In this document: positions 26,985-36,924 of the stretch, in pieces
Layout of the letters: every line of letters begins with the position of its first letter
Numbering within the stretch: the first letter of the stretch is position 1
Source: Comamonas sp. SCN 67-35
GTDB lineage: Bacteria > Pseudomonadota > Gammaproteobacteria > Burkholderiales > Burkholderiaceae_C
Reading direction: 5' to 3'
NCBI GenBank assembly: GCA_001725255.1
Contig: MEFV01000003.1
Span: 62,001-126,000, forward strand
Length of the DNA: 64,000 nucleotides
Notes under the pieces: model-generated
Told to the model about the DNA's origin: nothing
Seen by the model: the letters and a program-made list of their open reading frames with translations, nothing else
Databases searched by the model: none
Position numbers and translations under genes: made by a program

Positions 26985-27060
26985 GCCGGAGTAGCTCAGT
27001 CGGTAGAGCAGCTCATTCGTAATGAGAAGGTCGGGGGTTCGATTCCTCTCTCCGGCACCA
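26985..27060 (+). tRNA. tRNA-Thr (anticodon CGT)
   Basis: 76 bases including an encoded CCA. The acceptor arms GCCGGAG / CTCCGGC pair, AGCTCAGTCGGTAGAGCA forms the D arm, CTCAT-TCGTAATGAG carries the anticodon CGT, and GGGGGTTCGATTCCTC is the T arm. The 3' 50 bases are repeated exactly at 36632-36681 and serve as the integration site of the adjoining element. Confidence 0.96.
27011..27060 (+). repeat. attL: 50-bp tRNA 3'-end repeat
   Basis: Runs from GCTCATTCGTAATGAGAAGG to the CCA end and is identical to 36632-36681. The bases on either side differ (A versus C before, A versus C after). It starts at the anticodon arm, the usual crossover place for tRNA-targeting tyrosine recombinases. Confidence 0.92.
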
Positions 27061-27073
27061 AGACAGCAAAGGA

Positions 27074-27110
27074 AAGCCCGCTAGCGTTTGCATAGCGGGC
27101 TTCTTCTTTT
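27074..27110 (+). terminator. Element-borne terminator after tRNA-Thr
   Basis: AAGCCCGCTA (27074-27083), a nine-base loop, TAGCGGGCTT (27093-27102), then CTTCTTTTT. It ends tRNA-Thr transcription now that the original terminator has been displaced to 36687. Confidence 0.85.
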
Positions 27111-27119
27111 TCGGGCTCA

Positions 27120-27138
27120 TGTAGCCACCATGTAGCCA
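27120..27138 (+). repeat. 11-bp repeat TGTAGCCACCA, left-end copies
   Basis: TGTAGCCACCA at 27120-27130 followed directly by TGTAGCCA at 27131-27138. It is the same unit, in the same orientation, as the tandem array at 36475-36514 near the other end. The position 60 bases inside attL fits integrase arm-type binding sites. Confidence 0.75.
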
Positions 27139-27175
27139 GCAGCGCGGGGTTAAGGGCCGCTGCGGCCACAAAAAA

Positions 27176-27508
27176 TTACCCGTCGCTGCCCGGTTTCAGC
27201 CGCACCAGGTCGGCAGGCCAGCGCGTCAGGCGGCGCAGCATCCAGCCCTCGGGCAGTGGGCGGGCCCGGTAGACGGCCAAAACGGCCCCCTGAGCGTGCA
27301 CAACGCCATAGGTGAGTACGGACACCCCCGCGCTGCTGCGGCGCGTCTTGGTGGCTGTGCGCGCCTGCAGGGGGTCGCTAGCGTGGCTGTGGGCGTCGGG
27401 GGTGCGCAGGTAGGCGGCCAGGGCACGGCGGGCTATGTCTGACCGTTCTGCAGCGTTGGGCGTGCGATCGGCGTGGCGTGGCGTGGTGTCGGGTGCTGTG
27501 CGGGGCAT
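27176..27508 (-). CDS. Hypothetical protein of the element (110 aa)
   Basis: Not recognised. A basic, Arg/Ala-rich N-terminus (MPRTAPDTTPRHADRTPNAAERSDIARRALAAYLRTPDAH) precedes a more ordered second half, VSVLTYGVVHAQGAVLAVYRARPLPEGWMLRRLTRWP. AGGAG nine bases before the ATG at 27508 supports expression. It is the last gene before attL and follows the 119-residue gene on the same strand. Confidence 0.65.
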   Translation of the reverse strand: MPRTAPDTTPRHADRTPNAAERSDIARRALAAYLRTPDAHSHASDPLQARTATKTRRSSAGVSVLTYGVVHAQGAVLAVYRARPLPEGWMLRRLTRWPADLVRLKPGSDG

Positions 27509-27586
27509 GGTGGCGATTCTCCTGAAATGCGAAAGCCCCCGGGCAAGGGGGCGGGGGTGGTAGCGCCCTTGCGAGCGCTGCAGGGG

Positions 27587-27946
27587 TCAATGGGCTAGCG
27601 CGGCCTGCTCACGCTCGACATAAGCGGCAGCGGCTAGCCGGGTTTCGTCTTGGCGGCATTTGTATGCCTCAAACAAGTTGTAGCAGCGGTCAGCCAGCGC
27701 GTTAACGGCGGGGTCGTTAAGGTCAAGCGCATCATCGAGCAGGGGGGCGAAGGTGAACAGGTTGTAGGTGCGACGCGGTAGGGGGTTGGGCTCCACCCAC
27801 GCGGGGGCGGCTCCAAGCACGGCCTCAATGGCATCGGCCATGGGCAGGTCGCGCAGGGTGTGCATCCATTCGTCATGCGTGAAGAACGCGGCCCAGCTTT
27901 GCAGGTGCTTCGTAAGGTATGCGGCGCGGCGGGTGTTGGCGGTCAT
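27587..27946 (-). CDS. Hypothetical protein of the element (119 aa)
   Basis: Not recognised. Mostly helical and acidic-neutral, with aromatic-rich HLQSWAAFFTHDEWMHTLRDLP near residues 14-35, RRTYNLFTFAPLLDDALDL near 58-76 and CYNLFEAYKCRQDE near 87-101. No signal peptide or membrane segment. AAGGAG precedes the ATG at 27946, and an AT-rich promoter-like stretch lies upstream, so this gene and the one after it may form their own transcript. Confidence 0.7.
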   Translation of the reverse strand: MTANTRRAAYLTKHLQSWAAFFTHDEWMHTLRDLPMADAIEAVLGAAPAWVEPNPLPRRTYNLFTFAPLLDDALDLNDPAVNALADRCYNLFEAYKCRQDETRLAAAAYVEREQAALAH

Positions 27947-27960
27947 GGAAAAACTCCTTC

Positions 27961-28020
27961 AGTGGTTGAGTTGAGTCTTTACTTTACCTCTATAAATTAG
28001 TTTGAGCAAATTAAAGCTAT
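27961..28020 (-). promoter_or_regulatory. AT-rich promoter-like region upstream of the 119-aa gene
   Basis: The minus strand reads GCTTTAATTTGCTCAAACTA then ATTTATAGAGG, an AT-rich island within otherwise GC-rich DNA, with TATAGA as a possible -10. The -35 match is poor. The rest of the 28021-28168 gap is GC-rich with C and G runs and holds no gene that I can see. Confidence 0.4.
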
Positions 28021-28168
28021 CAGGGAAACTACAGACGCCGCCGCGCTAGCCGGGTAGTTCTGTCGCGCGTGGGCAGCGCCGCTAGCCAGGCCACCCCCCT
28101 GCCCGGGGCACCCCCGGGGGGTGGGGCCCAGAGGCCACCCCTCCCCCCATATCACTTAGGTTCGGCTC

Positions 28169-29161
28169 TTAACGGAAAAGCGGTTTTGAATTTGACGCGG
28201 CATCTTCAGGCCACGCTAGCGACGGGTTCAAGAGCGCCCCGGCGGCGTCCCGCAGGTCGTGGCTTGGGTCGCCAACGTCCAGTGCATACAGCACACGCTG
28301 CAGGTGCTTGGGCACTTGCGCGCCTTCCTTGTAGCGGGCGTCCTGCAGGGCCTTGCGGAGGTCTGCCTGGGCCTTGGTGGCGTACACGTCGTGCACGTAG
28401 GAGACCAGCCACGCTAGCATCGGGCGGTACTCATGCCAGTTGGGCGTGGCGTCGATGGTGGCGAGGGCAATCGCGGGCGCCCTGCAGCGGTCGCGGGGGC
28501 GCAGAGCATCCGCGCCATGTACCTGCACCTCCACGGCATACATCTGGGCAAGCCACAGGGCAAAGACTGACCGCGTATCGACCCCCAGGCGATAGTGCGG
28601 GCGCAGCGCCTCACCAAGCGTTGGAACAGAAGTGCCGCACATGGCCGCAGTCAGCATGCGATGCGCTGCCGCAGCTAGCGCAAAGCCTGCAGTGGCGTCC
28701 GGGGGAAAGGCCGGGCAGGCGCCCGAGTCCAAGGCCTGCAGCACGGCGTTGAGCAGGCTGTTCATGGCAATGGAACCTGTGCAGCGTGCGGCATGTTCGG
28801 TGGCTACGACGTTGAGCAGCGGCATGCATGGGTTAAACGGCCCGAGCGGATCAACGTGATCGTGGTCGTACTCCACCAGGCGGTGCGGGCCTAGCTCGGC
28901 TAGCAGGCGGCGCAGGTCTGGCAGGGTGTTGACGGTCTCCACGCGAGTGCGGCGGGCAGGTTGCGGTTGAGGTGCCGGGGTGGGCTTGGCTAGCATGGCG
29001 TGCTCGGCCATGGCGGCGTCCAGGTCTGCCAGAAGGGCATCGATGTCGTCATCCTCGGCGCTAGCTGCGGCAGGGGTGGGGGCAGACGCCGGGGGGTGCC
29101 CGGCAGGCGCGGCGGGTGTCCAGTTCCAGACGACGTCATCATCAAAATCATCGGTTTGCAT
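28169..29161 (-). CDS. Hypothetical protein of the element (330 aa)
   Basis: Not recognised. Residues 1-70 look disordered: acidic (MQTDDFDDDVVWNW), Ala/Pro-rich, with DDDIDALLADLDAAMAEHAML as a possible short helix. The folded part from about residue 75 has EYDHDHVDPLGPFNPCMPLLNVVATEHAARCTGSIAMN, ACPAFPPDATAGFALAAAAHRML, and a helical C-terminus (YATKAQADLRKALQDARYK). Cys and His are scattered without a clear zinc pattern. TGGAG precedes the ATG at 29161. It lies immediately beyond the probable origin, read away from it. Confidence 0.75.
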   Translation of the reverse strand: MQTDDFDDDVVWNWTPAAPAGHPPASAPTPAAASAEDDDIDALLADLDAAMAEHAMLAKPTPAPQPQPARRTRVETVNTLPDLRRLLAELGPHRLVEYDHDHVDPLGPFNPCMPLLNVVATEHAARCTGSIAMNSLLNAVLQALDSGACPAFPPDATAGFALAAAAHRMLTAAMCGTSVPTLGEALRPHYRLGVDTRSVFALWLAQMYAVEVQVHGADALRPRDRCRAPAIALATIDATPNWHEYRPMLAWLVSYVHDVYATKAQADLRKALQDARYKEGAQVPKHLQRVLYALDVGDPSHDLRDAAGALLNPSLAWPEDAASNSKPLFR

Positions 29162-29238
29162 GGGGGGCTCCAGATATAAACAAATTGGCTAGCGGTGGCA
29201 GGTTGATGGCGGGGGGCGGCAGGGGCAAAAATGGGAAA

Positions 29239-29332
29239 AAGTGCCACGTGCCCAGCAGTGACCATGATTTCCATATAGCTATAGAAAATATATCTACTAC
29301 TCTTTTTAGATATTGCTTGTCACGTGGCACTT
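29239..29332. other. Candidate replication origin: 12-bp inverted repeat around an AT-rich core
   Basis: AAGTGCCACGTG (29239-29250) and its exact reverse complement CACGTGGCACTT (29321-29332) flank 70 mostly AT-rich bases that contain the palindrome TATAGCTATA (29274-29283) and AAAATATAT. The noncoding zone 29162-29479 holds further copies of the core GTGGCAC in both orientations. Position beside the VapE and primase genes is what one expects of an origin; a regulatory operator is the main alternative. Confidence 0.5.
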
Positions 29333-29386
29333 AGACACCCTGCTCGGTAGAACAACTGCCCGGGGTAAATTAGTTTGGATTTTTCT

Positions 29387-29563
29387 GTGCCACCTTCGTC
29401 AAAATTTCCTGAAGGTGGCCCTTAGGTGACCCGGGGGTGGCACGTCCTGTAGGTGCGTCTGCAGCACTTTTTGGCACAGCTACCAGGCGCCCCCCCCCCC
29501 CGACCTGCGGGTAAACAGGGTGGAGGTGGCACTTTTTTGGGGGTTTTGCGCTGTAGGTGGCAC
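29387..29563. repeat. GTGGCAC-type iteron-like repeats beside the VapE gene end
   Basis: GTGCCAC at 29387-29393 and GTGGCAC at 29437-29443, 29526-29532 and 29557-29563, mostly within the longer GGTGGCAC. With the two copies in the inverted repeat at 29239-29332 this makes six in about 325 bases. The last two overlap the 3' end of the VapE coding sequence. Confidence 0.55.
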
Positions 29564-30925
29564 TGTTGCCTTCCATACACTAAGCCGCTCACTCCACAGC
29601 TTTTGAATGGCCGTTCCGGCCCGCGTTACGTCCGCCTTCGTGGGCTCGAAGATGCCCACCCTTTCGCAAACTTCGGTGGCCGTCAGCCAGCACAGTTGCG
29701 GGTGGCGCGTGCGGTTTTCCTCGGTGATGAATTGCACGTCAACCGTCTCCCACGGGAAGCGCTTTGCGGCGCGCTCGTATATGGGGTCTGACACCTCGTG
29801 CATCTGGTTGGCCTCGTTGAGTGCCTGCATCAGCTCGGGCTCCAAGTACCAGCGCTCGCCCGCGCGGTATCTGACCAGGTACTGCGCCCAGATTTGCTGC
29901 ATAACCTGCGGGTCGATCGGGTGGCAGGCCCGAACCTCGATCACCCAGAATCGGCGGTTGCTGGTGTCGTCCACAAGAAACTGCAGGTTGTTGACGGTGC
30001 CCGCAAGGCTCGTGCGTCGAGCCCGTTGCACAGGTTTGCGCCCGTAGGGCTCGCGCAGCGTGTCCAGGCGGTCGGTGATAAACACCTTGAGCGCGGCAAT
30101 GTCGGCTTTGCGCATCGTGCCGTCCAGCTCGCCTAGCTCGGCTATCCAGGTGGACAGTGCCCGTATCAGCGTGTCCTTGTCCCGTGGGTCTATCGTGAGC
30201 CCTTCAAGCATGGCGCGGTCAACGCCCATCGCGAGTGCCCGAACCCATCGGGTTTTGCCGCACCCCTGCGGTCCCGCCAGCACCAGCATGCCCGCCGCGC
30301 TGATGCCGCCCGGCTCGTACAGGGCGCCGATGCATTGCAGCATGAACTTGTTGAGGAGCCGCGCCGCTAGCGGTTTCTGCGCGGGGGCTGCGAGGTCCAG
30401 GGAATTGAAAAGCTCCATGCGCCGGTCGATGCCATCCCACGGTGTGCCTTCAATCCGAACGATCACGGGGTGGTATGCGTTGCGGCGCGCGATGACCTCG
30501 ACAGCCTCGGGCACGATGGCGCGGCTTATGCCGTAGCTCTCCATGAGGTCGCCCAGCATGGTTAGCTTGGTATTCAGGTCGTCGGCGGGCACCTCCTTGG
30601 ATGGAATCGAAATCTCCACCGTGCGCACCATCTCGTTGTAGCGAATGATGTTGCCGTGGTGCAGCGCGATCGCCTCCACGTTTGCAGTGACGGGCCGGGG
30701 CTTGACCTTCACTCCGTCGCGTTCTACCCATACCGGCAGCAGCGCATGCAGGGTCTTTGTGTCCATCAGCTCATGCCCGGCCACGGTGCGCTGCGGCGCA
30801 GGTTCCACGTTGGTGCGGTTGCCCGGCTCGCTCGCGGTCGGTGCTGACGCTGGGGGCGCAGCGCCGGGGCGCAGCGTGGCGCCTCCCTTCACTGCTGTGA
30901 ATGGTGTTGCGCTCTTTTCTGTCAT
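29480..30925 (-). CDS. VapE (virulence-associated E) family P-loop ATPase, probable replicative helicase-like protein
   Basis: 481 residues. An Ala/Pro-rich N-terminus (1-50) precedes a helical region and the ATPase: LVLAGPQGCGKTRWVRAL (Walker A) near residues 214-231, STWIAELGELDGTMRKADIAALKVFITDRLDTLREPYGR near 258-296 (Walker B plus the VapE signature), then NNLQFLVDDTSNRRFWVIEV. Such ATPases work with a primase in phage and satellite replication. ATG at 30925 has AGGGAGA upstream and overlaps the primase stop by four bases (ATGA). The last codons contain a run of 12 identical bases (29490-29501). Confidence 0.88.
   Translation of the reverse strand: MTEKSATPFTAVKGGATLRPGAAPPASAPTASEPGNRTNVEPAPQRTVAGHELMDTKTLHALLPVWVERDGVKVKPRPVTANVEAIALHHGNIIRYNEMVRTVEISIPSKEVPADDLNTKLTMLGDLMESYGISRAIVPEAVEVIARRNAYHPVIVRIEGTPWDGIDRRMELFNSLDLAAPAQKPLAARLLNKFMLQCIGALYEPGGISAAGMLVLAGPQGCGKTRWVRALAMGVDRAMLEGLTIDPRDKDTLIRALSTWIAELGELDGTMRKADIAALKVFITDRLDTLREPYGRKPVQRARRTSLAGTVNNLQFLVDDTSNRRFWVIEVRACHPIDPQVMQQIWAQYLVRYRAGERWYLEPELMQALNEANQMHEVSDPIYERAAKRFPWETVDVQFITEENRTRHPQLCWLTATEVCERVGIFEPTKADVTRAGTAIQKLWSERLSVWKATVPPTAQNPQKSATSTLFTRRSGGGGAW
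29490..29501. repeat. Homopolymer of 12 C (G on the coding strand) in the VapE gene 3' end
   Basis: The run encodes the GGGG of the C-terminal RRSGGGGAW. A one-base change in length would alter only the last few residues and the stop. It may be real slippage-prone DNA or a length error in the assembly. Confidence 0.85.
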
Positions 30926-32100
30926 TTCTCTCCCTTTCGTGCTGTGTAGGTCTGCGCGGCGGGGGCCTGACCCACGACGCCAAGGTGATGCGGAAAATGA
31001 GGCGCCCCGGGCCCTGTGAGGCCGCCCCAGTGGGTGCATGTCGTGCATGGCGATTCACTACCCCATGCTGCATGCCACGTGTCGCACGACGGCGGCCCGC
31101 CGGTGAGGCCGGACAGCTTGCGGTCAACCTCCTCGGGGTCGTAGCGGGGGTGTCCCCTGCTGACTTCGTGCGCCAGGGCGTCGCCCTCGACAGACAGCGC
31201 GGCGGTGCGGATGGCGAGCAGCCAGGGGCCGTAGGGCGTGCGGGCTCCGTTGTCCCTGATCGCCAGGCGGATGGCGGCGCAGTGGCGAGCCACCTGCAGC
31301 ATGTCAAACGGCGCGTGCCTGGGCTCCTCGTCATCAAGCCCCAGCTCGTCGTTCACTCCAACATAGGCGGCGAATCGGCCGGCGTCGGGGTGCCCGGCGC
31401 CCACGTTCAGCAGCTTGAAAAGGTGGGGTGTTTCGTAGGGCTCGCCCGTGCGGTACGCGCGCACCAGGCCGCCGGTTTTCTGGTGTATCGAGCCCGGCAT
31501 GCGCAGGATTCGTGCGCGATCTTGTGTCACCTCAATGTCGATCCTGAAGCCGTGCGCCCGCGCCAGGTTCACCAGCGCATCGGCCCCCGCCTGCCACGTC
31601 TCGGGGTCCATGTTCTCGGTGGTGGTGAAGTAGGCATGCGCCCCGCCCGAGCTGGTGAGCACGATCATGGTGGGGCGTAGCCCGGTGGCCTTGCAGAACG
31701 CTAGCAGCGCCTGCAACACGGGGCGCTGCCCGTTGTATCCGCCCTTGGCCTCGGTGCCTTCAATGTCCACCCATAGCCCGCGCAGCGCCACAGCGAAGTG
31801 CTTGCCCCGCCTGCGCTTGCCGTCCTTGTCCGCGCGGAATGTGGCAGGGGTGAAGTAGGCCCCACACTGCCCCGTCAGGACTCGCGCCAGAAATGCGGCG
31901 TAGTCCTCTCCGAGCTTGGGTATCGCCAGCCTGTTGGGCACGCCCTGCGCGTTGGATAGCACGGCGTAGGGCATGCTGCCTTCGATGTGCTTGGGCAGGA
32001 TACCCCGGAGAAAATCCTCCGGCTTCAACTCTTGCGCCGCCCCCAGCAGCGGCGCCATTTCCCTTGCCCACGCTAGCTTGGGTGTTGTACAATCTCGCAC
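30922..32100 (-). CDS. Primase-polymerase (archaeo-eukaryotic primase-like) with C-terminal zinc motif
   Basis: About 392 residues. LRGLWVDIEGTEAKGGYNG near 107-125 gives the catalytic acidic pair (D-x-E), VLTSSGGAHAYFTTTE near 147-162 matches the second primase motif (S-x-H) and DRARILRMPGSIHQKTGGLVRAYR near 196-219 the third. The C-terminus has CDTWHAAWGSESPCTTCTHW, a zinc-ribbon-like cluster seen in phage primases. GTG at 32100 is chosen: AAGGGA lies seven bases upstream and the frame before it overlaps the preceding gene. The stop overlaps the VapE start. Primase and ATPase, often one protein, are split here. Confidence 0.8.
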   Translation of the reverse strand: MRDCTTPKLAWAREMAPLLGAAQELKPEDFLRGILPKHIEGSMPYAVLSNAQGVPNRLAIPKLGEDYAAFLARVLTGQCGAYFTPATFRADKDGKRRRGKHFAVALRGLWVDIEGTEAKGGYNGQRPVLQALLAFCKATGLRPTMIVLTSSGGAHAYFTTTENMDPETWQAGADALVNLARAHGFRIDIEVTQDRARILRMPGSIHQKTGGLVRAYRTGEPYETPHLFKLLNVGAGHPDAGRFAAYVGVNDELGLDDEEPRHAPFDMLQVARHCAAIRLAIRDNGARTPYGPWLLAIRTAALSVEGDALAHEVSRGHPRYDPEEVDRKLSGLTGGPPSCDTWHAAWGSESPCTTCTHWGGLTGPGAPHFPHHLGVVGQAPAAQTYTARKGEK

Positions 32101-32115
32101 AGATACATCCCTTCT

Positions 32116-32140
32116 AGCCGCGTCCCCACGCGGCTTTTTC
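32116..32140 (+). terminator. Hairpin with T-run (plus strand) just upstream of the primase gene
   Basis: AGCCGCG-TCCCCA-CGCGGCT followed by TTTTTC. Read on the plus strand it is a textbook intrinsic terminator, although no plus-strand gene precedes it. On the minus strand the hairpin lies just ahead of the primase ribosome site and could affect its translation. Confidence 0.6.
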
Positions 32141-32147
32141 TTTGGCC

Positions 32148-32501
32148 TCAGCGCTTGCGTTTTCCTGCGCTCAGCGCCTCCACGGTGTCCATCAGCTCCT
32201 TGCCCCTCGGGGGGTTGCGCGAGCGCTCCGCCCTCAGGGCCTTTTCCAGTTCCGCCAGCTCGTTGGTGAGCAGCACATGCATGGCGCGGATGGCGTCCAC
32301 GCCCTTGGTGACGTCTGCCACGCTCAGGCGCTGGCCGCTCTCGGTGACGGTTTCCCCGTTCAGGGACGACACCAGCAGCGCGGTGCAATGGTTGATAGCG
32401 GCGTGCGAGCGCTGCACGGCCTCGCGCTTGTCTGCCACTTGGGCGTGCAGGTAGTCCAGGCGTGCGGCCTGCTCCTCCTGCTCGGTGGTGCGGTCATTCA
32501 C
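32148..32501 (-). CDS. Hypothetical helical protein of the element (117 aa)
   Basis: Not recognised. Strongly helical and charged: EQEEQAARLDYLHAQVADKREAVQRSHAAINH near residues 7-38 and AIRAMHVLLTNELAELEKALRAERSR near 70-95 look like two coiled-coil arms, with a basic end GKRKR. GTG at 32501 is the start, with AAAGGG six bases upstream. It overlaps the end of the previous gene by eight bases. The layout suggests a dimeric or scaffold-like small protein; no function is claimed. Confidence 0.7.
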   Translation of the reverse strand: MNDRTTEQEEQAARLDYLHAQVADKREAVQRSHAAINHCTALLVSSLNGETVTESGQRLSVADVTKGVDAIRAMHVLLTNELAELEKALRAERSRNPPRGKELMDTVEALSAGKRKR

Positions 32502-33072
32502 GGTCTGCCCTTTCGTCGGGCTCGAAACCCTCCAGCAGGGCAGCGCGGCGTGGCTTGCGCGCCCGCACGGCGGGGGCTTCGTCCGCCTGCTCCTCGACCA
32601 CGGGCAGCGTGCGCCCGGGGGTGCTCATTTGCACGTCGACCACCTCGGGCTCCTCGACTGCCAGGGCCATGCCACTGCGCCCGAAGTTGACGTAAATCAT
32701 GGGCAGCTTGTCGCCATCGTCGGCCTGGGCAAGTTCTTCGCGCACCTCGGCCTCTTTGGTGTTCTTTGCGACCTTCAGGATTTCAATGACTTCCTCTAGC
32801 TCAGCGTCAGGCAGCTCACGCCCGAGACGTTCAAGCCCTGCCAGGATGATCCGGCTCGCCACGGGCTTGATGGCCGCGCCGTCTGCCCGGGCGCGTGCCA
32901 CTTCGGTGCGCAGTTCGTCGCGGTGCTCAGCCATGAAGGCGCTCAGCTCAGCCGGGGGCATGCCTTCGAGCGTGGCGAGGTGTTCCAGCGGCGCGCATGG
33001 GTCAGCAGCCAGGCAGACGGCCAGGCGCCGCGTGCGCCCGGTGGCGCTGTTGTCGGGTAGCTGCTCACGCAT
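32494..33072 (-). CDS. Hypothetical protein of the element (192 aa)
   Basis: Not recognised. An N-terminal helical part (RTRRLAVCLAADPCAPLEHLATLEGMPPAELSAFMAEHRDELRTEV) is followed by KPVASRIILAGLERLGRELPDAELEEVIEILKVAKNTKEAEVREELA. The short strand segment MIYVNFGRSGMALAVEEPEVVDV precedes a low-complexity acidic and basic tail. The middle part resembles small DNA-packaging or regulatory proteins only in general character. Translation is coupled on both sides (eight-base overlaps). Confidence 0.7.
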   Translation of the reverse strand: MREQLPDNSATGRTRRLAVCLAADPCAPLEHLATLEGMPPAELSAFMAEHRDELRTEVARARADGAAIKPVASRIILAGLERLGRELPDAELEEVIEILKVAKNTKEAEVREELAQADDGDKLPMIYVNFGRSGMALAVEEPEVVDVQMSTPGRTLPVVEEQADEAPAVRARKPRRAALLEGFEPDERADRE

Positions 33073-33298
33073 CAGCAGTGACTCCGAGCAGTTCGCGGAT
33101 GTCAGCGACGGGCCATGCCAAGCGCCCGTTGATGCGGCGGGGGCGGATGGGGCTTTTTACCGCCCCGCAAGCCCAGCCCCTCAGGGTCTGGGGCTTGCGG
33201 CCAACGTAATAGGCGGCGTGGTCGGTTGGGATGAAATCCCGCGTTACGGTTTCAAGCGGCGGGAAATATGGGGCGACGGCGCGGGGTTGGGTCTGCAT
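33065..33298 (-). CDS. AlpA-like / MerR-type helix-turn-helix DNA-binding protein
   Basis: 77 residues. The core DFIPTDHAAYYVGRKPQTLRGWACGAVKSPIRPRRINGRLAWPVADIRELLGV has the compact winged HTH of AlpA and excisionase-like proteins: helix, turn with RKPQTLRGW as recognition helix, then a beta wing ending before RELLG. ATG at 33298 has GGAGAG upstream, favouring it over the longer frame from 33331. In P4-like elements AlpA-type proteins act in excision and integrase control; that role is inferred here. Confidence 0.75.
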   Translation of the reverse strand: MQTQPRAVAPYFPPLETVTRDFIPTDHAAYYVGRKPQTLRGWACGAVKSPIRPRRINGRLAWPVADIRELLGVTADA

Positions 33299-33375
33299 TT
33301 TTGACTCTCCATGAATGCCAAAAAACGGCATGTGTGAAGGATCAACGCGGACAATTTTTCAAGGGTGATAGCCCA

Positions 33376-33822
33376 TCAACTTTTTACCCCGCGCCGTAGC
33401 TCCCCGATGTCCAGGCGCAGGGTGTTTACGCTGCGCTTCAGCTCAGGTGCTAGCCTTTGGGCTATCCATGACGCGGGCCGTCTCTGATAGCCCCTCGCTT
33501 CGATCAGCTCCCGCAGTTGTGTCGTGCGCTCGTGGCGCTCTTTCACGTTGTCGCGCACTGCGGCGGCGCTGGCGCGTAGTTCACCCGCAGCATCTGAAGC
33601 TAGCCGCGCGCGGCGTTCCTCCCGCTCCCATGCTGTAAGTGCCTCGGGCGTGATGCCGTCGCGCTCGTTGACGTCCCCCGCCTTATCCCGCAAACGCGCA
33701 TCAAGCCCCTGCAGTTCCTCGGGCGTGGCGCGACGTGCTTCCCCGTTCTGGTCGGTCACGAACTCCCACCAGCCCGGGCGCCCGCGCTTCCTGCCGCTCG
33801 CAGGTTTATCGCTCGGTGGCAT
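33376..33822 (-). CDS. Hypothetical basic helical protein of the element (148 aa)
   Basis: Not recognised. Starts with a basic, Gly/Lys/Arg-rich GRKRGRPGWWEFV, then TPEELQGLDARLRDKAGDVNERDGITPEALTAWEREERRARLASDAAGELRASAAAVRDNVKERHERTTQLRELIEARG, a long charged helix, and RRPASWIAQRLAPELKRSVNTLRLDIGELRRG at the end, which could be an HTH. It overlaps the preceding gene by 17 bases. DNA binding is plausible from charge only. Confidence 0.65.
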   Translation of the reverse strand: MPPSDKPASGRKRGRPGWWEFVTDQNGEARRATPEELQGLDARLRDKAGDVNERDGITPEALTAWEREERRARLASDAAGELRASAAAVRDNVKERHERTTQLRELIEARGYQRRPASWIAQRLAPELKRSVNTLRLDIGELRRGVKS

Positions 33823-34111
33823 CGCCCTTGTCCTGTGCCTGCGCGGCGTCCATCGCCCTCGTGCGCGCCCGGGCCATTCGTATCAGCTGCTCGTTGGTGA
33901 GTGTCCGGGGGCGCTGCGTTGCACGCTCCAGCTCTAGCTGTGGCTCCCGTTGCACTTGTAGTGCCTTTATGCGCTCGTCGATGGCTATCAGCGCGCGCAG
34001 GTGCCAATACTCGCGCATCCCGATTGCCTCATTAGCGATGGCAAATAGCTTCATCGCCAGCTCGCGCCAAAGGTCTTCGGGCGTTATGGTGGGCGGCTGT
34101 TCATCAGGCAT
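33806..34111 (-). CDS. Hypothetical protein of the element (101 aa)
   Basis: Not recognised. Helical, starting MPDEQPPTITPEDLWRELAMKLFAIANEAIGM, continuing with REYWHLRALIAIDERIKALQVQREPQLELERATQ and ending in RTLTNEQLIRMARARTRAMDAAQAQDKG. AGGAGG precedes the ATG at 34111, an unusually strong ribosome site for this element. It overlaps the next gene, so the two are probably made together. Confidence 0.65.
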   Translation of the reverse strand: MPDEQPPTITPEDLWRELAMKLFAIANEAIGMREYWHLRALIAIDERIKALQVQREPQLELERATQRPRTLTNEQLIRMARARTRAMDAAQAQDKGDATER

Positions 34112-34124
34112 GGCGTACCTCCTG

Positions 34125-34403
34125 TCAGGCGTGCACCAAGTGCACCACGGCGCGCGCCCCCACGGCCTGGGCGTAGCGCTGCACGCTGCGCAGCGATGGC
34201 GTGGCCTTGCCCCCCTCCAGGCGGGCCACTGCCCCCTGCGTGGTGCCCATGCGCTGCGCCACGGCGGCCTGCGTGAGCCCGGCGCGGGCGCGGGCGGCGA
34301 TCAGCTCGCGGGCAAGGGCGTATTCAGGCGCTTGCGCCTCGTACTCGGCACGGGTCTGCGGGTCTGCCAGTAGCTGGCCCTTGATGTCTTTCAGCGTTTT
34401 CAT
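34125..34403 (-). CDS. XRE-family helix-turn-helix regulator (HigA-like)
   Basis: 92 residues from the ATG at 34403 (GGGAG upstream). ELIAARARAGLTQAAVAQRMGTTQGAVARLEGGKATPSLRSVQRYAQAVGARAVVHLV is a complete Cro/C1-type HTH with the Q-x-x-V-A-x-R and Q-G-A-V-A-R-L-E-G-G pattern. It directly follows the toxin/antitoxin pair. It may be a second antitoxin or the element's repressor. Confidence 0.8.
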   Translation of the reverse strand: MKTLKDIKGQLLADPQTRAEYEAQAPEYALARELIAARARAGLTQAAVAQRMGTTQGAVARLEGGKATPSLRSVQRYAQAVGARAVVHLVHA

Positions 34404-34421
34404 GCCGGGGCTCCCAATCAT

Positions 34422-34745
34422 TCATGCGTGCGCAGCGGCAGGGCTCGCGCGGCGCCTGCGTGCCTTGGGTGCGTTCACCTTCACCACGGGCGCCATGCCT
34501 GCGGTGGCGGCCATGTCAATCAGCGTATCCAGGGAAAACAGGTTGATCTTGCCGCGCACCAGGTCGGAAATGCGCGGCTGTGTGACGCCGAACAGCTCGG
34601 CGGCCTGTGCCTGCGTCATGGCCTGGGCGCGGATGGCCTCGGCAAGGTGCATCATCAGCTCAGAGCGTGCGCGCATGCTGGCAGCTTCCTGCGGGGTGTT
34701 TTCGATGGCGTCCCACACGCTGGCGAATCGTTGGTTTGTGCTCAT
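34422..34745 (-). CDS. XRE-family antitoxin (HigA2-like) of the toxin-antitoxin pair
   Basis: 107 residues. ELMMHLAEAIRAQAMTQAQAAELFGVTQPRISDLVRGKINLFSLDTLIDMAATAGM is the HigA2 / HTH_37 type found downstream of Gp49-like toxins, with TQAQAAELFGVTQPRISDLVRGK as the HTH. The ATG at 34745 overlaps the toxin stop by four bases, the usual translational coupling for toxin-first modules. The tail APKARRRRASPAAAHA is basic. Confidence 0.85.
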   Translation of the reverse strand: MSTNQRFASVWDAIENTPQEAASMRARSELMMHLAEAIRAQAMTQAQAAELFGVTQPRISDLVRGKINLFSLDTLIDMAATAGMAPVVKVNAPKARRRRASPAAAHA

Positions 34746-35071
34746 GGTGCAAGCTCCTTCATCAGTGCCTTGTAGCGCGTCCGTGCCAGGTCAATATCGC
34801 GCTTGGCAGTCTGCTGCGTCTTCTTCTGGAAGCAGTGCAGCACGTAGACGGCATCGGCCAGCTTGGCGACGTACACGACGCGAAACGCCCCGGCTTCATC
34901 CCATATGCGCAGCTCCCATGCCCCTGGGCCTATCGTCGCCATCGGCTTGGCGTCGTCCGGGCTCATGCCGCGCTGCACCTTGTCCAGCTGGTGCCCGGCC
35001 TCGCGCATGGCAGTGACGGGAAATGCCCGCAGGTCGTCCAACGCGCTAGCCCTGAACTCGATAGGCTTCAT
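34742..35071 (-). CDS. RelE-superfamily toxin (HigB / phage Gp49-like)
   Basis: 109 residues from the ATG at 35071 (MKPIEFRASALDDLRAFP). WELRIWDEAGAFRVVYVAKLADAVYVLHCFQKKTQQTAKRDIDLARTRYKALM is the Gp49-like/COG4679 core with the conserved R-V-x-Y-V and F-x-K-K-T-x-x-x segments of ribosome-dependent mRNA interferases. The antitoxin follows with a four-base overlap. Toxin-first order fits HigBA. It lies between the integrase and the other regulators and would stabilise the element. Confidence 0.85.
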   Translation of the reverse strand: MKPIEFRASALDDLRAFPVTAMREAGHQLDKVQRGMSPDDAKPMATIGPGAWELRIWDEAGAFRVVYVAKLADAVYVLHCFQKKTQQTAKRDIDLARTRYKALMKELAP

Positions 35072-35077
35072 CGTTGA

Positions 35078-35083
35078 ATTATA
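35078..35083 (-). promoter_or_regulatory. Possible -10 box of the toxin-antitoxin operon
   Basis: Minus-strand TATAAT within an AT-rich stretch (AATATACAAAGATCAATATAAT) only six bases before the toxin ATG. That spacing would make a near-leaderless transcript, so a promoter slightly upstream (AATATAC) is also possible. Confidence 0.35.
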
Positions 35084-35115
35084 TTGATCTTTGTATATTT
35101 TGCTAGCCGGGCAGT

Positions 35116-36453
35116 TCAACGCACGGCGCGCAGCTTGCCCGGCTCGCTGGTGGCATCGAATTGCACCCCGGCCTGCTGCAGAATGTGCGCCTCCACCAGT
35201 TCAGCATAGGGGCGCAGGGCGTCGATGCTGCGGGGCCTGTAGCCTTCGGCCACGGCACTGGGGCGGTGGCCCATGATCTGGGCGATGGCTCCCGCTGGCG
35301 CCCCTGCAGCCTCTCCCAGCAACGAGTAGGAGCGGCGCAGGCCGTGCACTGTCAGGTGCTCAATTCCGGCGTGTTCCAGCACCTTGGCATGGCTTGCCCG
35401 GGCGTCGCTGATGCGCCCGGTTTTGCTGGTGCTGGCAAATACGAACGTCCCCGCCCTGGGCAGTGTCACCAGCAGTTGCGCCAAGTACGGCGTCAGCGGA
35501 ATGGTGCGCGTGGCCTCCACCTTGTCGGCGATCGTCAGCTTGCGCCACCGAAAATCAATGTCTGCCCACTTGAGCGCGGCCATCTCCTCGCGCCGCGCGC
35601 CGGTCAGCAGCAGCGCCCGCAGGTACACGCTAGCCACGGGGTTGCCCACCTGCCCGCACCCCGCCCACCATGCCGCCACCTGGGTGGCCTCCAGGTGATC
35701 GGTGCGTTTTTTGAGGGGTGGCAGGTTGTCCGCGATACCTTCGGCCTTGCCCGCGTCGCGGTCGGTCAGCTCGCGGTAGTCCCGCTTGCCGCTAGCCCAG
35801 CGCAGGAAGCCGCGAAACATCATCAGGGCCCGCGCCGCTTGGTACCTGCCCGCCTTGGCTTCGCGCTCGTACCACTCCGAGAGCGCATCCCCGTCGATGG
35901 ATGCCAAGGGCAGTGCCATCAGTGGGTACAACGGGCCGGGGCGTGTAACCCCCTGCCCTCGCTTGCGTGGCACGCCTCCGGGTGCGGCCATCGCCTCCAG
36001 GTCGGCACGGTAGCGCGGCTTCCAGGCCTCCCGGCGCCTGGGGCGGCCCTCCTGCAGGTACTGCGGCCACAGGTCGCCCACGGTGATCTGCTGCGCGGCG
36101 TCTGCTGCGCGCTGCGCCTCCTGCGCTGCCTGCTGCTCGCGCTCCTGCTCGGCAGGGTTGACGCCATCGTCGATCAGCACTGCCAGGCGGTTGGCCTCCT
36201 TGCGTGCCGCCTCGATAGTCCAGCTGCGCACGTCGCCTATGGTGCGGCGCACGGTGCGCCGGTTCAGCTTGCGCTCGAATACGAAAGACTTGGCACCGGC
36301 GGCAGTGACACGCACGCGCAGGCCTGGGGCCTCGGTGTCGCGCATGAATGCCTGGGTCTTGCCCGGCGGGCAGGTCAGGCGCTCGATAGCCCCCATGCTC
36401 AGGTTGACCCGTGCCGACAGGTCGGGGGCATCGGTCTTTTTCGGTCGTGCCAT
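35116..36453 (-). CDS. Tyrosine recombinase / integrase of the element
   Basis: 445 residues. The DUF4102-type arm-binding N-terminus (LTCPPGKTQAFMRDTEAPGLRVRVTAAGAKSFVFER, with ARKEANRLAVLIDDGVNP) precedes a core-binding region and a catalytic domain: LLTGARREEMAALKWADIDF (first Arg), HGLRRSYSLLGE (His-x-x-Arg), IMGHRPSAVAEGYRP (His and nucleophile Tyr). GAGGAG seven bases before the ATG at 36453 fixes the start; the longer frame upstream merely translates the 11-bp repeats. It catalyses insertion into and excision from tRNA-Thr. Confidence 0.93.
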   Translation of the reverse strand: MARPKKTDAPDLSARVNLSMGAIERLTCPPGKTQAFMRDTEAPGLRVRVTAAGAKSFVFERKLNRRTVRRTIGDVRSWTIEAARKEANRLAVLIDDGVNPAEQEREQQAAQEAQRAADAAQQITVGDLWPQYLQEGRPRRREAWKPRYRADLEAMAAPGGVPRKRGQGVTRPGPLYPLMALPLASIDGDALSEWYEREAKAGRYQAARALMMFRGFLRWASGKRDYRELTDRDAGKAEGIADNLPPLKKRTDHLEATQVAAWWAGCGQVGNPVASVYLRALLLTGARREEMAALKWADIDFRWRKLTIADKVEATRTIPLTPYLAQLLVTLPRAGTFVFASTSKTGRISDARASHAKVLEHAGIEHLTVHGLRRSYSLLGEAAGAPAGAIAQIMGHRPSAVAEGYRPRSIDALRPYAELVEAHILQQAGVQFDATSEPGKLRAVR

Positions 36454-36474
36454 TTGTGTGCTCCTCGGGTTCCG

Positions 36475-36514
36475 TGTAGCCACCATGTAGCCACCATGTA
36501 GCCACCATGTAGCC
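36475..36514 (+). repeat. Tandem 11-bp repeat TGTAGCCACCA, right-end array (3.6 copies)
   Basis: Units at 36475-36485, 36486-36496 and 36497-36507, with a partial unit at 36508-36514. It lies between the integrase start and attR, in the same orientation as the left-end copies at 27120-27138. Probable integrase arm sites, and perhaps the integrase operator as well because they sit immediately upstream of its ribosome site. Confidence 0.8.
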
Positions 36515-36631
36515 AAAAACGGGCTATTTTGGCGAATATCAATCAACGCAAATTATAGCTACACCCGCTGTAAATTGTTGATATGTAAGGAAATTATCAA
36601 CAGTAATCAACACCAGCGAAACCGTGTATTC

Positions 36632-36681
36632 GCTCATTCGTAATGAGAAGGTCGGGGGTTCGATTCCTCTCTCCGGCACCA
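36632..36681 (+). repeat. attR: 50-bp copy of the tRNA-Thr 3' end
   Basis: Exact duplicate of 27011-27060, from the anticodon arm to CCA, with no 5' tRNA half. It marks the distal junction of the element. The stretch 36454-36924 holds only the 11-bp repeats, an AT-rich zone, this site, a terminator and about 200 bases in which I see no gene. Confidence 0.92.
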
Positions 36682-36686
36682 CATGC

Positions 36687-36719
36687 AAACCCCTGATTCG
36701 CAAGAGTCAGGGGTTTTTT
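36687..36719 (+). terminator. Original tRNA-Thr terminator, displaced by the insertion
   Basis: AAACCCCTGA (36687-36696), loop, TCAGGGGTTT (36707-36716), then TTT. It directly follows attR, so before insertion it would have followed tRNA-Thr. Confidence 0.85.
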
Positions 36720-36924
36720 CATGTGGTCATGAATGGGCCTGCAGGAACATCGTCGAGCCACGATGCCGCAAGCTGCAAGCGTCTCGGCGCCAACAGCTCG
36801 CGGACAACGTGGGGCCTGCTCGCGCGCTTCTTCCGTCTGCCGGACCGCTTCAGCAGCGCCTTTTCCGTGGTCGATGCCGCGAGCGTGGCACAGTAAGGCA
36901 CGTTGAAACAAAAAGGGGCAGGCG

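What the first reader, a model, noticed from the sequence alone, without database searches (positions are those of the whole stretch)
27080..35796. The integrated element is packed with the palindrome GCTAGC
Reading the element base by base I find 22 copies of GCTAGC, starting at 27080, 27377, 27594, 27633, 28045, 28081, 28215, 28413, 28674, 28899, 28989, 29060, 29188, 30366, 31700, 32072, 33449, 33599, 35045, 35102, 35629 and 35791. In the other ~54 kb I found only two (13003 and 25471). Thirteen lie in the first 2.1 kb. They occur in coding and noncoding DNA (for example inside the terminator hairpin at 27074). In genes they read only as Leu-Ala (CTA GCx) or Ala-Ser; the third frame would contain a TAG stop. 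The tetramer CTAG is normally avoided in such genomes. Either the element comes from a host without that avoidance, or the sites are functional: methylation marks, targets of an element-specific protein, or anti-restriction signals. I know of no satellite element described with such a signature.
Basis: seen in the sequence. Interest (0 to 1): 0.78.

Follow-up and report, generated by a model that had tools for sequence, protein, structure and literature searches.

The report
Mobile element studded with one palindrome
A 9.6-kb mobile DNA element carries the six-letter palindrome GCTAGC about 80 times more densely than the chromosome around it, in a pattern that neither its proteins nor its codon habits explain, so the sequence is probably a recognition mark read from the DNA itself, although what reads it is unknown.

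Summary
The carrier is a tRNA-Thr-integrated element (27061-36631) with integrase, toxin-antitoxin-like genes, primase, VapE helicase and an iteron-type origin: PICI-like in layout, not proven.

CTAG is not simply unavoided here: 22 of 27 CTAG are the full palindrome (expected share 0.11). With proteins and codon usage fixed, 16 coding sites are seen against 2.4 (0 of 5000 shuffles). Leu-Ala uses CTA in 11 of 20 cases where that completes GCTAGC and 0 of 25 where it cannot. Noncoding DNA is denser still.

No family genome counted approaches this density (35 counted) and ten integrase relatives lack it, so a CTAG-tolerant donor is not supported. But it is not unique in kind: like for like, 0 of 118 bacterial windows and 1 of 103 viral windows show a palindrome enriched more strongly, and two viral contigs show comparable cases with other palindromes.

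The parts
26985..27060 (+). tRNA-Thr(cgt), integration target; its last 50 bases (27011-27060) are attL
   Evidence: ARAGORN; 50-bp perfect direct repeat
36632..36681 (+). attR: second copy of the 50-bp tRNA-Thr end
27061..36631 (.). integrated element interior, 9571 bp, all 14 assumed genes on the minus strand
   Evidence: att repeats; ORFs; gene set used
27080..27085 (.). GCTAGC, noncoding, in terminator-like hairpin after tRNA-Thr
27377..27382 (.). GCTAGC in 110-aa ORF (Ala-Ser)
27594..27599 (.). GCTAGC in 119-aa ORF (Leu-Ala)
27633..27638 (.). GCTAGC in 119-aa ORF (Leu-Ala)
28045..28050 (.). GCTAGC, noncoding, upstream of 119-aa ORF
28081..28086 (.). GCTAGC, noncoding, upstream of 119-aa ORF
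28215..28220 (.). GCTAGC in 330-aa ORF (Leu-Ala)
28413..28418 (.). GCTAGC in 330-aa ORF (Leu-Ala)
28674..28679 (.). GCTAGC in 330-aa ORF (Leu-Ala)
28899..28904 (.). GCTAGC in 330-aa ORF (Leu-Ala)
28989..28994 (.). GCTAGC in 330-aa ORF (Leu-Ala)
29060..29065 (.). GCTAGC in 330-aa ORF (Ala-Ser)
29188..29193 (.). GCTAGC, noncoding, 27 bp upstream of the 330-aa ORF, near the origin-like region
30366..30371 (.). GCTAGC in VapE gene (Leu-Ala)
31700..31705 (.). GCTAGC in primase gene (Leu-Ala)
32072..32077 (.). GCTAGC, noncoding, 14 bp upstream of the assumed primase start
33449..33454 (.). GCTAGC in 148-aa ORF (Leu-Ala)
33599..33604 (.). GCTAGC in 148-aa ORF (Leu-Ala)
35045..35050 (.). GCTAGC in Gp49/RelE-like toxin ORF (Ala-Ser)
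35102..35107 (.). GCTAGC, noncoding, upstream of the assumed Gp49/RelE-like start
35629..35634 (.). GCTAGC in integrase (Ala-Ser; 7 of 9 relatives have Ile at the first residue)
35791..35796 (.). GCTAGC in integrase (Ala-Ser; 7 of 9 relatives have Cys at the first residue)
29239..29563 (.). probable replication origin: six GTGGCAC copies (29241-, 29324+, 29387-, 29437+, 29526+, 29557+) around an AT-rich stretch, 3' of the VapE gene; two further copies lie elsewhere (32895-, 35967+)
   Evidence: role inferred
35116..36453 (-). tyrosine integrase (Phage_integrase, Arm-DNA-bind_3)
34742..35071 (-). Gp49-like/RelE-type toxin
34422..34745 (-). XRE-type HTH protein (HTH_37)
34125..34421 (-). XRE-type HTH protein (HTH_31)
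33065..33331 (-). 88-aa ORF with relatives in 5 of 10 integrase-relative loci; no family hit, AlpA-like only by size and position (own judgement)
30922..32058 (-). primase (DNA_primase_S below its cut-off; PHROG 25314)
29480..30925 (-). VapE-domain helicase
28169..29161 (-). 330-aa orphan ORF with 6 sites
27118..27141 (+). ATGTAGCCACC repeats, possible integrase arm sites (left)
   Evidence: role inferred
36473..36518 (+). ATGTAGCCACC repeats, possible integrase arm sites (right)
   Evidence: role inferred

Best explanation
GCTAGC is an element-specific iterated palindrome: a short double-stranded DNA recognition site that this satellite-like integrated element has accumulated by point substitution and keeps by selection, because a sequence-specific DNA protein acts on many copies of it along the element. 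Shown: in this genome the excess is confined to the element, it is specific to the whole palindrome, it is present in coding and noncoding DNA, and it is independent of amino-acid sequence and codon usage. Inferred: that selection rather than a mutational bias keeps it, and that a protein reads it. Density is highest in the cargo arm beyond the origin, whose proteins are orphans and so probably least constrained.
For: Specificity: 22 of 27 CTAG are GCTAGC (expected share 0.11; highest bacterial control group 0.25, p 1e-9). Independence from proteins: synonymous shuffle 16 against 2.4, the highest z of all hexamers (z 9.0 with 3000 shuffles, 7.8 with mechanically called ORFs); Leu-Ala uses CTA 11/20 when it completes the site and 0/25 otherwise, Fisher p 1.7e-5. 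Noncoding 6 in 1101 bp against 0.3 expected. Flanks share no long repeat, so the sites are not copies of an inserted unit. In the integrase both sites fall where 7 of 9 relatives have another first residue (Ile, Cys), and none of the 9 has GCTAGC there. No palindrome in 118 bacterial windows reaches 7.8 (maximum 6.5). All 3 places in this genome with two GCTAGC 25-55 bases apart lie in the element.
Against: No close relative was found, so conservation or turnover of single sites could not be tested. No element protein matched a methyltransferase in Pfam; the host has no C5 methylase match and one N6/N4 methylase. No reader is identified. Flanking preference is weak (one position, G at +4, 27/44 against 0.31 in controls). 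Viral DNA shows comparable cases: CGGCCG in an L357 window z 8.4, CTCGAG over contig L335 z 10.0, GCTAGC itself over L357 z 7.5 and in tandem arrays of L117 z 12.9, so a general and possibly non-functional process in mobile DNA may do this. Viral record G779 also favours GCTAGC (42 of 92 CTAG), and L131 (8 of 10) and L120 (4 of 5) have as high a share with few, clustered sites. The host itself slightly favours this context (0.20-0.25 against 0.11).
Confidence: 0.46

Rival explanations
1. Inheritance from a donor host that does not avoid CTAG; the sites are ordinary composition carried over.
For: Total CTAG in the element (27 against 31) is near expectation, unlike the host (10 against 160), and codon usage is looser (CTA 26 of 268 Leu codons against 1 of 318 in seven host genes of the window).
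Against: The contexts are wrong: 22 of 27 GCTAGC and no CCTAGG, ACTAGT or TCTAGA. GCTAGC is 6.7-fold above composition. Of 35 genomes counted the densest has about 0.38 per kb against 2.30. Leu CTA before Ala occurs only after G.
Confidence: 0.1
2. Mutational drive: a site-specific process, for example deamination of a methylated cytosine in GCYRGC on both strands, turns GCCGGC and GCTGGC into GCTAGC without selection.
For: GCCGGC is nearly absent (1 against 10.8 under codon shuffling) and GCTGGC/GCCAGC is lower than in host DNA (16 against 36.9 scaled).
Against: Other GC-rich palindromes are equally missing without a matching product (CCGCGG 0, CGGCCG 1, TGGCCA 0), which looks like ordinary restriction avoidance. 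GCCAGC is not depleted among Ala-Ser pairs (4 of 20; about 4.6 expected from the codon shares). The integrase sites differ from relatives by several bases and not by single transitions (relatives are 39-62% identical). The present host has no C5 methylase match.
Confidence: 0.14
3. Nothing special: phages and satellites often have some over-represented palindrome, and GCTAGC is one draw from that distribution.
For: Against composition alone, 10 of 103 viral windows have another palindrome as extreme, and 12 of 148 bacterial windows (GCGCGC, CTGCAG). Under codon shuffling on like-for-like ORFs, 1 of 103 viral windows exceeds the element (L357, CGGCCG 8.4 against 7.8), L335 CTCGAG reaches 7.2 in its window and 10.0 over the contig, and L357 also over-uses GAGCTC and GCTAGC. 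G779 and G781 over-use GCTAGC 2.25- and 5.8-fold.
Against: Such cases are rare after codon control (3 of 103 viral windows above 6.5, 0 of 118 bacterial ones above 6.5, only the top 12 windows of each set re-run at 1000 shuffles). The viral contigs were fetched for clustered GCTAGC and are not a random sample. A recurring phenomenon would still need a cause.
Confidence: 0.22
4. Operator sites of an element regulator: only the promoter-proximal sites matter and the rest are by-products.
For: 5 of the 6 noncoding sites lie upstream of assumed gene starts (coordinates). In contig L131 GCTAGC recurs on both sides of a small gene that looks to me like a ribbon-helix-helix protein (no family search), so GCTAGC can be arranged like an operator.
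Against: 16 of 22 sites are inside genes; the 330-aa ORF has 6, while six genes of about 2.1 kb in all, including both XRE-type genes, have none.
Confidence: 0.08

Closest known systems
Highly iterated palindrome HIP1 (GCGATCGC) of cyanobacteria (PMC4390886; abstract and three passages seen)
   Same: Short palindrome far above expectation; spread by nucleotide substitution (from a title in that paper's reference list); occurrence in and between genes (recalled).
   Different: HIP1 is chromosome-wide and tied to host methyltransferases acting on its inner sequence (abstract); here the palindrome is confined to one mobile element while the host chromosome has it at 0.11 of expectation, and no matching methylase is known.
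Mycobacteriophage stoperators (PMC9283540; title and abstract start in a search listing)
   Same: One protein's sites distributed across a phage genome.
   Different: The repressor there recognises an asymmetric sequence; GCTAGC is a 6-bp palindrome, mostly inside genes, with no known reader.
Gram-negative phage-inducible chromosomal islands, PICIs (PMC6092414; abstract and the section 'Features of PICI candidates' read)
   Same: Specific att site, integrase at one end, one-way transcription, iterons around an AT-rich stretch just 3' of the replication gene, orphan cargo.
   Different: No evidence of helper phage, induction or packaging; no AlpA family match; VapE helicase plus a separate primase.
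Restriction-site avoidance in mobile DNA
   Same: The element lacks CCGCGG, GCCGGC, CGGCCG and TGGCCA.
   Different: GCTAGC, itself a type II restriction sequence (NheI, recalled), goes the opposite way.

Membership tests
HIP-type iterated palindrome | palindrome strongly over-represented beyond composition and coding constraint | tested here: met
HIP-type iterated palindrome | present in both coding and noncoding DNA (feature recalled) | tested here: met
   16 coding, 6 noncoding
HIP-type iterated palindrome | chromosome-wide in the host | tested here: not met
   92 sites in 3.35 Mb outside the element; o/e 0.11 in the rest of the window and in 11 sampled stretches
HIP-type iterated palindrome | associated methyltransferase for the inner sequence | tested here: inconclusive
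   no PF00145 match in the genome; one PF01555 match of unknown specificity; no helper phage available
Gram-negative PICI | specific att site with integrase | tested here: met
   whether prophages use this att site was not tested
Gram-negative PICI | unidirectional transcription | tested here: met
   all 14 assumed genes on the minus strand
Gram-negative PICI | iterons flanking an AT-rich stretch 3' of the replication gene | tested here: met
   positions, sequence; function not tested
Gram-negative PICI | alpA regulator (feature recalled) | tested here: inconclusive
   88-aa ORF has no Pfam, PHROG or NCBIfam match but has relatives in 5 of 10 integrase-relative loci
Gram-negative PICI | phage-dependent induction and packaging | not testable with these tools
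   needs culture
DNA uptake or Chi-type sequence | over-represented in the host chromosome | tested here: not met
   o/e 0.11
Stoperator system | asymmetric recognition sequence | tested here: not met
   site is an exact palindrome; flanks nearly random
Stoperator system | cognate repressor that stops transcription at the sites | not testable with these tools
   needs protein

The most novel reading that the evidence does not exclude
Individual satellites and phages each carry their own iterated palindrome as a multi-copy identity tag read by an element- or helper-specific protein; GCTAGC here, CTCGAG in L335 and perhaps CGGCCG in L357 are instances of one unrecognised self-marking strategy.
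Probability: 0.15. Interest if true: 0.85.

Novelty: new variant of a known kind. Interest (0 to 1): 0.5.

Why it matters
HIP1 is spread over whole chromosomes, which makes it hard to remove and its function hard to test (recalled). A 9.6-kb element with 22 sites, 16 of them in genes where most can be changed synonymously, is small enough to recode completely, so what an iterated palindrome does for its DNA becomes directly testable. If a protein or methylase reads the sites, it would be a way for a satellite to tell its DNA from that of host and helper. The comparison also shows that a few viral contigs carry a strong excess of another palindrome after codon control, which a simple survey could map.

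Tried and rejected
Donor without CTAG avoidance: rejected on context and genome counts. Uptake signal or Chi: rejected because the host is depleted. Copies of an inserted repeat: rejected, flanks unrelated. Off-frame stop ('ambush') idea: only weakly tested; the top of the shuffle list is GCTAGC, with its overlaps CTAGCG, TAGCGT and GGCTAG among the first eight. Helical phasing: none seen by eye in the spacings, no test made.

Close relatives: VapE 30 of 399 family genomes including its own, all others 36% identity or less, and 2 of 9 genus genomes including its own; the 330-aa ORF 1 of 399, its own; primase 5 of 389 order genomes including its own, best other 31%; no confirmed hit; no near DNA match in phages. 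Protein searches of phage and plasmid records gave only distant VapE and primase relatives and nothing for the 330-aa ORF in plasmids. Structure of the 330-aa ORF: mean pLDDT 50, unusable. Defence families: one weak partial hit, for the Gp49-like ORF.

My first filter of these required a GCTAGC share of at least 0.3 and so dropped L357, which is denser than the element; it is reported now. A first shuffle comparison with 60 shuffles put the element at 9.4 and all others at 8.9 or less; with more shuffles the like-for-like element value is 7.8 and one viral window exceeds it. I lowered the best explanation from 0.50 to 0.46, raised 'nothing special' from 0.18 to 0.22 and interest from 0.55 to 0.50 for that reason. 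Methylase motifs by simple pattern in ORFs of at least 100 aa of seven palindrome-rich contigs: none in L335, L357, L166, L370, L319, L079; two DPPY ORFs in L095.

Literature: among the rows listed I saw no paper on GCTAGC enrichment in a satellite; several of these listed only part of their matches. PMC4390886 was seen as abstract and passages, PMC6092414 as outline with abstract and one section, all others as listings.

Full report
Observation. GCTAGC occurs 24 times in the window: 22 at the listed positions between 27080 and 35791, plus 13003 and 25471. The genome holds 114, so 92 outside the element; the density contrast is 83.7-fold. CTAG is strongly avoided in host DNA (10 against 160 expected in the rest of the window; 32 against 676 in 11 further 20-kb stretches of the genome, picked by contig number and not by content) but stands near expectation in the element (27 against 31).

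The carrier. A 50-bp perfect repeat of the tRNA-Thr end bounds 27061-36631. All 14 assumed genes are on the minus strand: integrase, Gp49/RelE-like toxin, two XRE-type proteins, small unknowns, an 88-aa ORF, primase, VapE helicase, then an origin-like region with six GTGGCAC copies around an AT-rich stretch (29241-29563; two more copies lie elsewhere), and three orphan ORFs of 330, 119 and 110 aa. Start codons of VapE, primase, toxin and integrase were chosen by me. 'AlpA-like' for the 88-aa ORF is my judgement; no library matched it. The layout resembles Gram-negative PICIs as described in PMC6092414 (abstract and one section read), but helper dependence was not testable. Ten integrase relatives (39-62% identity over most of the protein for nine, 69% over 44 residues for the tenth) come mostly from betaproteobacteria, seven of ten from Comamonadaceae by title or by genus (family of the genera recalled), and one from Haliea. 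Five of the ten loci also carry a relative of the 88-aa gene and three a relative of one XRE-type gene. The host is probably of that family (inference).

Is it more than chance? Four tests. First, composition: 22 against 3.2, the most extreme palindrome of the element. Second, context: all 27 CTAG contain GCTAG on at least one strand, 22 the full palindrome; CCTAGG, ACTAGT and TCTAGA are absent. Third, codons: with proteins and codon pools fixed, coding sites are 16 against 2.4 (sd 1.4; maximum 10 in 5000), and GCTAGC has the highest z of all hexamers; with 3000 shuffles z is 9.0 for the chosen genes and 7.8 for mechanically called ORFs, none reaching the observed count. Leu-Ala pairs use CTA in 11 of 20 cases where the preceding base is G and in 0 of 25 otherwise; Ala-Ser uses GCTAGC in 5 of 20. 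Fourth, noncoding DNA has 6 in 1101 bp against 0.3. The excess holds on both sides of the origin: 13 in the left 2.1 kb and 9 against 2.5 in the right 7.4 kb. In the three left ORFs 9 of 17 Leu-Ala or Ala-Ser pairs are sites, elsewhere 7 of 48 (counted from the table).

Controls that count against uniqueness. Against composition alone, some other palindrome is as extreme in 10 of 103 viral windows and 12 of 148 bacterial windows of the same size. Under codon shuffling with mechanical ORFs (quick pass over all, top 12 of each set re-run with 1000 shuffles) the element has 7.8. None of 118 bacterial windows (82 family, 36 own or genus) reaches that, the maximum being 6.5. One of 103 viral windows exceeds it: CGGCCG in L357, 8.4. 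L335 has CTCGAG at 7.2 in its window and 10.0 over its 12.4 kb, and L166 GCCGGC at 6.8. L117 has GCTAGC at 12.9, but within an array of near-identical 27-bp units. The viral contigs were fetched by scans for clustered GCTAGC, so they are not a random sample. GCTAGC itself is as dense or denser in some of them: L357 (2.50 per kb over a 12-kb contig, z 7.5, with 115 CTAG and two other enriched palindromes), L153 (2.28 per kb, 76 CTAG), and stretches L301 (2.75) and L340 (2.69). Counted over whole records, G781 has 57 sites in 41 kb and G779 48 in 65 kb; G779 avoids CTAG otherwise (92 against 221) yet over-uses GCTAGC 2.25-fold, a weaker case of the same signature. What stays particular to this element is the combination: high density, CTAG almost only as the full palindrome, spread over the whole element, in a host that avoids it.

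Relatives. Among 35 family genomes counted (most of those with high counts, the genus, and five others) the densest is about 0.38 per kb. The densest sampled stretches, from two of these genomes, had 0.62 per kb and a GCTAGC share of CTAG of 0.25. 33 stretches around VapE relatives had 30 GCTAGC in 580 kb (two matches on short contigs were left out), and the ten integrase-relative loci, flanks included, 14 in 146 kb. At the two integrase sites none of nine aligned relatives has GCTAGC; seven of nine have Ile, and seven of nine Cys, where the element has the Ala of its Ala-Ser. With relatives at 39-62% identity this is suggestive only. No relative close enough to follow single sites was found.

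Reading. The pattern (one exact palindrome, both kinds of DNA, independent of protein, in this genome confined to a mobile element, highest among orphan genes) is what a DNA-level recognition site under selection would give. Cyanobacterial HIP1 (PMC4390886, abstract and passages seen) is the nearest analogue in behaviour but is chromosome-wide and methylase-linked, so this is not filed as a member. A mutational route through GCYRGC was considered because GCCGGC is almost absent; it does not explain the equal absence of CCGCGG, CGGCCG and TGGCCA, and the host has no C5 methylase family match.

Verdict. New variant of a known kind, interest 0.50 (lowered from 0.55), with a bolder reading (self-marking palindromes in satellites and phages) kept at 0.15.

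Noticed in passing
L131:5580-6100 (also L114; matches of L077 and L128 show the same spacing): Contigs that look to me like filamentous phages carry 7-8 GCTAGC, often as TGCTAGCA and about 44 bp apart, on both sides of a small gene for a ribbon-helix-helix-like protein (own judgement, no family search): looks like an operator array.
   Followed up: partly
L335: Viral contig with 19 CTCGAG spread over 12.4 kb, z 10.0 under codon shuffling, next palindrome 4.3: a possible second case of an element-specific palindrome.
   Followed up: partly
L357: Viral contig of 12 kb over-using three palindromes, GAGCTC, CGGCCG and GCTAGC (z 8.3, 7.8, 7.5).
   Followed up: partly
27061-36631: The element has CCGCGG 0, TGGCCA 0, GCCGGC 1 and CGGCCG 1, which host DNA has at 0.7, 2.55, 1.04 and 1.02 of expectation: a trace of past restriction pressure.
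   Followed up: partly
27118-27141 and 36473-36518: ATGTAGCCACC repeats near both ends, probably integrase arm-binding sites.
   Followed up: no
27074-27115: The element brings a terminator-like hairpin to the tRNA-Thr gene; the presumed original one is left beyond attR (about 36690-36720). Read by eye.
   Followed up: no
L276:1321-2943: Host DNA methylase of the N6/N4 family (540-aa ORF), type III Mod-like in appearance (own judgement).
   Followed up: no
L040:1501-1668: Repeat of 36 bp containing GCTAGC in a family genome, unrelated to the element.
   Followed up: no
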